The translations under genes and the position numbers were made by a program. From NCBI RefSeq assembly GCF_000215935.2, contig NZ_AFNU02000003.1, positions 124,001-188,000 of the forward strand: a stretch of 64,000 nt of DNA, written 5' to 3'. The first letter of the stretch is position 1, and each line of letters opens with the position of its first letter. The notes under the pieces were generated by a model, which ran no database searches, was not told the DNA's origin, and was given only the letters and a program-made list of their open reading frames with translations. Shown piece after piece: positions 14,015 through 62,062 of the stretch. The DNA is from Haloplasma contractile SSD-17B. GTDB taxonomy: Bacteria; Bacillota_I; Bacilli_A; Haloplasmatales; Haloplasmataceae.

Positions 14015-14962
14015 ATGAAAACGTTAACAGACCAAGAAAAAAACAAGATGTTTGGTAACTATCTATATGAGATGAGAAAGCAAAGGGGACTTACTCAGGA
14101 GAAGTTGGCTAACAATATCTGCGATCCTAGGCAGATTTATCGATACGAAAAAGGTAGGAGTCTACCCTCTGCTCAAAAAATGTTTCTAATGTCTGAGCGA
14201 TTAGGTGTTGACTTAATGAACTTTTTTGAACAATTTGAAATCAACAACTACCGCATGCTTTCAGAACTTAAACAAAAAATAGAAGTTTGCTTTTATAAGA
14301 ATGATTTCAAGACCCCACTAAACCTTATTAAAGAGCTTGACGATAAATTAGAGTATCTCACTGATAAAAATATTCAATATTATCTATGGGTAAAATCAAG
14401 TTGTTTATATAGAACAGGGGATAATTATGATGAAGTTATTAAAAATATTAATAAGGCTCTAAACAAGACCTATATAAAAGAAGTTAAGACCCTTACAACT
14501 CAAGAGGTTAATTTATTGAACCTAAAGGCAATTATCCTAATGGAAAACAATCAAGATGATCACGCAGTTGAAATATGGAATTTAATTTTGGATAAAACTG
14601 ACCTAACGTTTAGTGATGAATTAGAAAAATTACTACCAAAGATTTTTTATAACTTATCTTATATTTATAGAAAGAATAAACAATTTGATCTTGCAATCTC
14701 TTTTAGCCAAAAGGGAATTGATTATTGTATTAATCAAGGTATTTTACTTGGACTAGCTTATCTCTATTATAACAATGGTCTTTCGAAGTTAGCATCTAAC
14801 CGTAAAGATGAAGGAATTGAGTCCATAATCAGGACATTTCAATTATTAAAGATTGAAAATAATACAAATGTAATTAAACTCTTTAGGACTGGTTTAAAGG
14901 AAGACTTTGATTTAAATATTGACGATTATCTCTCATGCAAAAAAGGCTATACCACTTCCTAA
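14015..14962 (+). CDS. HTH (Xre-type) transcriptional regulator with C-terminal TPR-like helices
   Basis: 315 residues. Residues about 12-70 are a Xre-type helix-turn-helix (YEMRKQRGLTQEKLANNI, IYRYEKGRSLPSAQ). The remaining 240 residues are helical repeats of the TPR kind seen in Rgg/PlcR-type quorum regulators (for example YNLSYIYRKNKQFDLAISF). Peptide binding is typical of that architecture, but no signal-peptide gene is visible next to it. The ATG at 14015 has a GGGAGGT site. An upstream acctcc at 13929-13934 is complementary to that site and could mask it in a longer transcript. Confidence 0.78.
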   Translation: MKTLTDQEKNKMFGNYLYEMRKQRGLTQEKLANNICDPRQIYRYEKGRSLPSAQKMFLMSERLGVDLMNFFEQFEINNYRMLSELKQKIEVCFYKNDFKTPLNLIKELDDKLEYLTDKNIQYYLWVKSSCLYRTGDNYDEVIKNINKALNKTYIKEVKTLTTQEVNLLNLKAIILMENNQDDHAVEIWNLILDKTDLTFSDELEKLLPKIFYNLSYIYRKNKQFDLAISFSQKGIDYCINQGILLGLAYLYYNNGLSKLASNRKDEGIESIIRTFQLLKIENNTNVIKLFRTGLKEDFDLNIDDYLSCKKGYTTS

Positions 14963-31309: not shown

Positions 31310-31943
31310 TTAATCATTATTAAATTCCGTACAAATATCTTTAAGTTTACATTCATCACAATTCGGTTTTCTAGCTGTACAGTGATAGCGTCCAAAAAAA
31401 GATCATTTGGTGATGTAAGGCGCACCACTTTTCTTCAGGAAATACATCAATCAACTTTTTCTCAATTTTTAGTGGCGTATCGTTTTCATTTGCAATACCT
31501 AAGCGCTTGCTAACACGAGCTACATGGGTATCAACAGCGAATGCTGGCTGATCAAAACATACAGACAATACAACATTTGCAGTTTTACGTCCTACACCCG
31601 GTAACTTTTCTAATTCTTCACGAGTATCAGGTACCTTCCCGTCATATTCATCAATCAATATTTGACTCATCTTTTTTACGTTTTTTGCTTTTGTCTTATA
31701 TAACCCAATACGTTTTAAATCTTGTTCTAATTCAACAATTGGTGCATTCGCATAATCATTTGGTATTTTATATTTCTCAAAAAGAGCTTCCGTTAGTTGA
31801 TTCACACTTTTATCGGTCGTCTGTGCAGACAACATGACCGCAACTAATAATTCAAAATGATTTGAATGATTCAGTTCACAATACGCATCAGGAAACATTA
31901 CATCGAAAACATCGAGAATGTGGTCAACTTTTAATCCATCCAT
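31310..31943 (-). pseudogene. nth: Endonuclease III with a frameshift before its iron-sulfur cluster
   Basis: Nth is the DNA glycosylase/AP lyase for oxidised pyrimidines. The uninterrupted frame gives 190 residues with the helix-hairpin-helix LEKLPGVGRKTANVVLSVCF (catalytic Lys) and VDTHVARVSKRLG (catalytic Asp), then ends wrongly at 31371. At a run of seven T (about 31395) removing one base restores GRYHC-TARKPNCDECKLKDIC, which is the family's C-x6-C-x2-C-x5-C cluster, and a stop at 31310. The corrected protein is 210 residues, the normal length. Either the gene is mutated, or the homopolymer was miscounted. Confidence 0.9.
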
Positions 31944-32644
31944 GAAACGTACACTTCCTCTTTTTCATTTTGGTTGTTAGTCGTTTTCTTTTTTGCATCT
32001 TCATAACGACGGAATTTTTTTGTAAAATCCTTTGCCTTTTCAATTGTATTAACATTATTCTTTTGCCAATTGAGTAAAATTCGGTCTATATATTTTAGTG
32101 ATAACTTTCCTAAACCAACAGACTCTTTAAGTGCTTGTCTTATTAGACTTAAATCATAATCATCTACTTTAATCCAATCTGAAATGATTTCAATTTCCAT
32201 TGAAGATAGTGGTCTACCAAATTCATTTTCAAATGTGCTAGCTAGTTCAGAGATTGTACCTGTCTGTTGCTTTGTGTTCTGGATTACACTTTCTTTTGTA
32301 ATAACACTAGCGATTTTATCATATAGTGGCTGAAGCGTAAAATGCTCTTTTACTTTACCATTTTCGTCCATGTTTACTTCAATAGATAGATAACCACTTT
32401 GCACTAAGTCATGTACATAGTTTGAACACGTGTTTAAGTCTAGCGTTACTTTTTCTGTTAACGCCTTAATTGATAAAAATTTAACTCCGCTTTTTGAAAA
32501 ATTATATATATGTAATAATAGCATTGCACTAGTCTCATTAAGACCTAATTTTTTATAATGCTCGATAATAAAGCCTTTGACGTCTAATACATTTAAATCA
32601 ATAATTTTCTTAATTAAAGGATTTTGCGTCATATCATTCTTCAC
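31931..32644 (-). CDS. dnaD: DNA replication initiation protein DnaD
   Basis: 237 residues with an N-terminal winged helix (about 1-110) and the C-terminal DnaB_2/DnaD domain, including the signature YDLSLIRQALKESVGLGKLSLKYIDRILLNW. DnaD helps load the replicative helicase. It overlaps nth by 13 bp, the dnaD-nth pair being conserved in Bacillus. Confidence 0.92.
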   Translation of the reverse strand: MKNDMTQNPLIKKIIDLNVLDVKGFIIEHYKKLGLNETSAMLLLHIYNFSKSGVKFLSIKALTEKVTLDLNTCSNYVHDLVQSGYLSIEVNMDENGKVKEHFTLQPLYDKIASVITKESVIQNTKQQTGTISELASTFENEFGRPLSSMEIEIISDWIKVDDYDLSLIRQALKESVGLGKLSLKYIDRILLNWQKNNVNTIEKAKDFTKKFRRYEDAKKKTTNNQNEKEEVYVSWMD

Positions 32645-61058: not shown

Positions 61059-62062
61059 TTAACATCGTTCAAGCACAACCGCGTGTGCTATGGATGGGAT
61101 AGTATCTTTCTGGAGAATCATGTTCGGATTAAGTAATGCACCCGTTGCAACAACTAGAACTTTATTTAATTCACCTTGTTCTAATTGTTTTTTATATAAC
61201 CATATGTAACGACTGCACAGCAAGCACAACCACTGCCACCTGAGAACGTTGGTTGATCATCACTATAAATCATAAGTCCACAGTCGTTATGAACCTTATC
61301 AATACTGTAGCCTTTATCATTCATGATATCAAGCAAGATTGGTTGCCCCTGTTTTGATAAATCACCTGTTACGATTAAATCATAATAATCAGGTGTGCGA
61401 TTTAGGTCTTTCAGATGTTGAATGATTGTATCACTTGCTGCAGGTGCCATAGCAGTTCCCATATCATTAGGATCGCTCTGCTTAGCATCGATTACCTTTC
61501 CGATCGTGACCGAATCAATTTTAATCTTACTTTTCTCTTTTGAAACTAGTGCTGCGCCACTGCCTGTCACGGTATATGTCAATGTATGTGGTTTTTGACC
61601 AACATACTCAGTAGGATACCTAAACTGCCGTTCTGCTGTTGAATTATGGGAACTCGTTGCAGCAATTATATGATTAAAGTTTCCTCCATCGACTAAGAGT
61701 GCTGCAGTTAGTAACGTTTCCATTGATGTTGAACAAGCACCATACATTCCCATAAATGGGATTTCAAAATCACGCATGACATAGTTACTGATTACCGTCT
61801 GGTTAATTAAATCACCAGCTAATACTAAATCTATTTGTTCTTTTTTAATATTTCCTTTTCTAATTGTATTTTCAAGTGCATCTTGTAATAATCGCTGTTC
61901 AGCCTTTTCCCAATTATCTTCGCCACAATAATTATCTTTATATGTTTTATCAAAGTAATTTTTAAGTGGTCCTTCACTTTCTAATGGTCCAACTACTGAG
62001 TATGCACTTTGTAGATATATATCATGATTTAATTGAATACTTTGTTTTCCGGCCTTTGCCAT
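61059..62062 (-). pseudogene. spoVAD: SpoVAD with a -1 frameshift at A AAA AAC
   Basis: SpoVAD is the thiolase-fold protein that binds dipicolinic acid. The zero frame from the ATG at 62062 (AGAGGGTGA site) runs through FMGMYGACSTSMETLLTAALL and GGSGCACCAVVTYG, then stops at 61181 after GYIKNN. The stop codon is preceded by ATA AAA AAC AAT TAG. A slip of -1 on A AAA AAC continues as QLEQGELNKVLVVATGALL and ends VVLERC at 61059. With it the protein has about 334 residues, close to the 338 of B. subtilis; without it the last conserved strands are lost. Programmed slippage, polymerase slippage on A6, mutation, or a missing A in the sequence are all possible. Confidence 0.88.

What the first reader, a model, noticed from the sequence alone, without database searches (positions are those of the whole stretch)
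61150..61195. SpoVAD split at a canonical -1 slippery heptamer
The zero frame reads ATA AAA AAC AAT TAG; A AAA AAC in this phase is a textbook -1 slippery site, and shifting there restores the conserved SpoVAD C-terminus (LVVATGALL) and normal length. Such a site would yield a short and a full protein from one gene. The run of six A also allows a simpler reading, namely one missing A in the sequence.
Basis: partly seen in the sequence, partly recalled or inferred. Interest (0 to 1): 0.66.

Follow-up and report, generated by a model that had tools for sequence, protein, structure and literature searches.

The report
Likely single-base error in spoVAD gene
A spore gene of the bacterium Haloplasma contractile is cut short by one base missing near a run of six As, most likely a sequencing or assembly error (or else a recent mutation) and not a programmed ribosome shift, so the finding is ordinary.

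Summary
On the minus strand spoVAD reads ATA AAA AAC AAT TAG and stops after 293 codons. An in-phase A_AAA_AAC lies at 61193-61187, and the -1 frame carries the missing conserved C-terminus (42 residues). Programmed frameshifting is not supported. All 100 related spoVAD loci examined, including all seven sampled from the same family, are uninterrupted. One of them has the identical in-phase heptamer in an open frame. The heptamer is weak evidence: losing one A from an in-phase NNA AAA AAA C creates it automatically, and 57 of 831 long ORFs sampled carry one. There is no Shine-Dalgarno-like stimulator, and the only strong hairpin begins inside the heptamer and is absent from 15 relatives. The genome matches the Haloplasma contractile draft, assembled from Roche and Illumina reads with the 454 Newbler assembler among others. 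A second gene in the window, endonuclease III (nth), is broken at a T7 run, needing a shift of the opposite sign. A related control genome shows no such break in about 360 kb of comparable coding DNA. The likeliest cause is a one-base homopolymer error in the assembly, next a genuine recent indel, with programmed frameshifting a distant third.

The parts
61184..62062 (-). spoVAD zero-frame part, 293 aa (stop TAG 61183-61181)
   Evidence: TIGR02845 positions 1-287, E 3.8e-126
61187..61193 (-). in-phase A_AAA_AAC heptamer (A6 run 61193-61188)
   Evidence: read directly
61181..61183 (-). TAG stop that ends the zero frame, one codon after the heptamer
   Evidence: read directly
61059..61187 (-). 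C-terminal 42 codons of spoVAD plus TAA, in the -1 frame
   Evidence: tail matches TIGR02845 positions 287-327, E 1.1e-14; 61% identical to a family member over the last 54 residues
61149..61189 (-). 12-bp hairpin whose 5' arm (61189-61178) begins inside the heptamer; not considered functional
   Evidence: absent from 15 relatives
31394..31400 (-). T7 run at which nth (endonuclease III) is also broken, with the opposite sign of shift

Best explanation
The split is a one-base homopolymer error in the draft assembly: one A is under-counted in or next to the A6 run of an otherwise intact spoVAD. The real gene would be a single frame of about 334 aa making one ordinary SpoVAD, the soluble protein bound to the DPA transporter. 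The in-phase slippery heptamer is a by-product of the lost A. Shown here: the split, the intact relatives, the conserved tail, the second homopolymer break and the control genome without any. Inferred: that the base is missing in the record and not in the cell.
For: All 100 related loci are uninterrupted through the C-terminus. The tail is conserved as in a working gene. The genome is identified as Haloplasma contractile: 34 contigs, with ftsZ at C3:201950, inside the dcw interval Contig3:198625-229704 of the published reassembly. That reassembly used Roche and Illumina data with 454 Newbler and gap closers (PMC3855842). 454 homopolymer errors are biased to A and T and produce many frameshifts in low-GC genomes (PMC3277595); the sampled GC is 32%. 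A second gene in the window, nth, is broken at a T7 run. In about 368 kb of comparable coding DNA this genome has 2 homopolymer breaks and 2 short tandem-duplication breaks, while family member G006 has none judged real in 360 kb. Loss of one A from NNA AAA AAA C makes the heptamer automatically, and 37 such sites exist in the sample. Isolated frameshifted genes confirmed by homology are attributed mainly to sequencing error (PMC3711429).
Against: The assembly also used Illumina reads, which usually correct homopolymers. The run is only six A, moderate for a 454 error. Both breaks lie near the 3' end of their genes, where genuine indels are relatively more common (PMC3711429). No raw reads or independent assembly were available.
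Confidence: 0.62

Rival explanations
1. A genuine recent one-base deletion in strain SSD-17B: spoVAD is a fresh pseudogene, or makes a protein lacking its last 42 residues.
For: A/T homopolymer indels are common natural mutations. The break is at 87% of the gene, where true indels are relatively enriched. Selection on sporulation may be relaxed in a cultured strain (inference).
Against: The neighbouring genes spoVAC, spoVAE, a spore germination GerXA-like gene, sigF and spoIIAB are open, and the tail shows no further decay. nth, which is not a spore gene, is broken in the same manner.
Confidence: 0.3
2. Programmed -1 ribosomal frameshifting at A_AAA_AAC makes a 293-aa and a roughly 334-aa SpoVAD from one gene.
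For: The heptamer is in the right phase, one codon before the stop, and the -1 frame carries the conserved C-terminus. A proven insertion-sequence case with A_AAA_AAC has no established stimulator (PMC4066793), so lack of one is not fatal.
Against: 100 of 100 relatives are uninterrupted. L010 has the same heptamer in an open frame. No SD-like motif lies upstream. The hairpin starts inside the heptamer with no spacer and is absent from 15 relatives; 1.4% of random coding windows fold as well. In-phase A_AAA_AAC occurs in 57 of 831 ordinary ORFs.
Confidence: 0.05
3. Transcriptional slippage on the A-run adds an A in some mRNAs and restores the frame.
For: An A-run is present at the break.
Against: Six A is short for efficient slippage in bacteria (general knowledge, not tested here). 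The sample holds many longer A-runs in ordinary open frames: 425 A7 and 71 A8.
Confidence: 0.02

Closest known systems
Homopolymer-associated artificial frameshifts of Roche 454 assemblies (PMC3277595)
   Same: A/T run, low-GC genome, single-base shift in a conserved gene, and another affected gene nearby
   Different: Illumina data were also used in this assembly, and raw reads were not checked
Singleton frameshifted genes of the GeneTack survey (PMC3711429)
   Same: Homology-confirmed frame transition not shared by any relative
   Different: This one happens to carry a canonical heptamer
Insertion-sequence -1 frameshifting at A_AAA_AAC (PMC4066793, cluster A_AAA_AAC_1)
   Same: Heptamer and phase
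   Different: No conservation of the site and no second ORF of its own function; ordinary relatives make SpoVAD in one frame
SpoVAD (TIGR02845; PDB 3LM6, 3LMA)
   Same: The protein encoded, about 64-69% identical to family members over the N part
   Different: Frame interrupted in this record only

Membership tests
Programmed -1 ribosomal frameshift gene | In-phase X_XXY_YYZ heptamer before the zero-frame stop | tested here: met
   61193-61187, stop at 61183-61181
Programmed -1 ribosomal frameshift gene | Shift site conserved in relatives | tested here: not met
   100 of 100 loci uninterrupted; the exact site is in no other of 100 class genomes
Programmed -1 ribosomal frameshift gene | Stimulator: upstream SD-like element or downstream structure at a spacer of about 5-9 nt | tested here: not met
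   No SD-like motif in the 40 nt upstream; fold downstream of the heptamer not clearly better than shuffles; hairpin starts inside the heptamer
Programmed -1 ribosomal frameshift gene | Both products made | not testable with these tools
   needs proteomics or a reporter
Homopolymer sequencing or assembly error | Single-base indel at an A/T run in a gene intact in all relatives | tested here: met
Homopolymer sequencing or assembly error | Other homopolymer indels in the same assembly, absent from a control genome | tested here: met
   nth T7; G006 has none; counts are small (2 versus 0)
Homopolymer sequencing or assembly error | Accurate reads disagree with the record | not testable with these tools
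   no reads held
SpoVAD | Full-length TIGR02845 match | tested here: met
   positions 1-287 and 287-327 across the two frames

The most novel reading that the evidence does not exclude
If the A6 is real, Haloplasma contractile could use a lineage-specific -1 ribosomal frameshift to make full-length SpoVAD alongside a form lacking its last 42 residues, tuning assembly of the DPA transporter.
Probability: 0.04. Interest if true: 0.55.

Novelty: not a real feature. Interest (0 to 1): 0.06.

Why it matters
It matters little as biology. It shows that in AT-rich drafts a canonical slippery heptamer at a gene break is a natural by-product of losing one A from a homopolymer, so it should not by itself be taken as recoding. 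It also flags two genes in this record (spoVAD and nth) that would be mis-annotated as broken.

Tried and rejected
Two of six frame-jump candidates, cmk/rpsA-like and an ABC permease pair, were rejected as ordinary separate genes that are fused or adjacent in the relative. The single hit in the control genome was an 86-aa stop-to-stop ORF match whose aligned subject itself contains stops, so it was rejected as non-coding. A 50-nt hairpin with z -5.2 was considered as a stimulator and rejected: it starts within the heptamer, relatives lack it, and its window was chosen after the fold was seen. A coding-potential scan of the window flagged one more homopolymer site (14923-14959), but its tail matched no family. 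The 2011 Haloplasma genome paper is not held. The one paper holding both 'SpoVAD' and 'frameshift' is a general sporulation-gene survey, known from its title and abstract only and not read further.

Full report
Observation. On the minus strand the spoVAD gene (ATG at 62062) reads ...TAT GGT TAT ATA AAA AAC AAT TAG and stops after 293 codons. The in-phase heptamer A AAA AAC is 61193-61187. From its last base the -1 frame reads QLEQGELNKVLVVATGALLNPNMILQKDTIPSIAHAVVLERC and ends at 61059. The zero-frame part matches TIGR02845 (spore_V_AD) over positions 1-287 and the tail matches 287-327. There is one spoVAD in the genome.

Where it comes from. The window is C3:124001-188000 of a 3.40-Mb, 34-contig genome. 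The published reassembly of Haloplasma contractile has 34 contigs and a dcw cluster at Contig3:198625-229704. ftsZ of this genome lies at C3:201950-202234, and a rhodopsin gene is present, as I recall is reported for this species. That assembly was made from Roche and Illumina data with Newbler, SOAPdenovo, Velvet, CISA and gap closers (PMC3855842).

Relatives. In 100 related loci, 20 from whole-genome relatives and 80 from named genomes (one genome evidently occurs in both sets), spoVAD runs uninterrupted through its C-terminus in a single tblastn match without stops. The seven same-family genomes read GYIK or GYFK, then one of K, N, H, R, Q, then LL or LF, in one frame. L010, evidently the same record as Inordinaticella fortuita L026, reads TAT ATA AAA AAC TTA CTT: the same in-phase heptamer in an open frame, with nothing to gain from a shift. 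Of 82 distinct full-length frames parsed, 9 have some in-phase slippery heptamer in the equivalent 12 codons, all in open frames. The exact 17-base site was found in no other of 100 genomes of the class.

How telling is the heptamer? In 831 ORFs of at least 150 aa (955 kb coding) sampled from this genome there are 61 in-phase A_AAA_AAC in 57 ORFs, and 37 in-phase NNA AAA AAA C, each of which would become an in-phase A_AAA_AAC on losing one A. Removing one A from every coding A-run of 6 or more leaves an in-phase X_XXY_YYZ heptamer in 267 of 1518 cases (18%), and in 160 of 403 for A7 runs. So the heptamer favours programmed frameshifting over homopolymer loss by only a few-fold.

Stimulators. 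No SD-like motif occurs in the 40 nt upstream. RNA starting just past the heptamer does not fold clearly better than shuffles (90 nt, z +0.8; 60 nt, z -1.1; 39 nt, z +0.2). A 12-bp stem (61189-61178 with 61160-61149) is strong in a 50-nt window chosen to contain it (z -5.2). Its 5' arm begins inside the heptamer, so by the usual geometry a ribosome on the slip site would have melted it. None of 15 relatives has it, and 1.4% of random coding windows fold as well.

Other breaks in this assembly. Proteins of family member G006 were compared with 1.2 Mb of this genome, and the reverse. In about 368 kb of comparable coding DNA six frame jumps appeared. Two are adjacent separate genes. Two are short tandem duplications on C1, about 13 bp near 154.0 kb in a transposase and about 16 bp near 219.7 kb in a glycosyltransferase. 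Two are homopolymer breaks, spoVAD and nth. In nth (endonuclease III) a T7 run at 31400-31394 throws the frame off, in the opposite sense from spoVAD, before the conserved FFGRYHC and cysteine-rich end; the relative reads ATG ATT TTT TTT GGT in one frame. It is the only nth over the family cut-off in the genome. The reverse comparison in G006 (360 kb) gave no convincing break. The counts are small and support the error reading without proving it.

Reading. A GeneTack survey attributes homology-confirmed frameshifts that are not shared by relatives chiefly to sequencing errors, with recent indels next; it also notes that breaks near the 3' end lean towards true indels (PMC3711429). 454 homopolymer errors favour A and T and affect low-GC genomes most (PMC3277595); the sample is 32% GC. 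I therefore rate a one-base assembly or sequencing error at 0.62, a genuine recent indel at 0.30, programmed frameshifting at 0.05 and transcriptional slippage at 0.02. Only reads or resequencing can separate the first two.

Noticed in passing
window 31313-31964 (-), T7 run 31400-31394: nth (endonuclease III) is broken at a T7 run before its conserved FFGRYHC and cysteine-rich C-terminus; the relative G006 is uninterrupted.
   Followed up: yes
G000 C1 about 219.68 kb (in L176): A glycosyltransferase gene is thrown out of frame by a roughly 16-bp tandem duplication (AATCAATGCTATTA repeated), possibly an assembly join.
   Followed up: partly
G000 C1 about 153.99 kb (in L173): An IS3-like transposase is thrown out of frame by a roughly 13-bp tandem duplication (TATGAACTTGCG repeated).
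   Followed up: partly
window 61149-61189 (-): A 12-bp RNA hairpin spans the slip site and stop codon; not found in 15 relatives, probably chance.
   Followed up: partly
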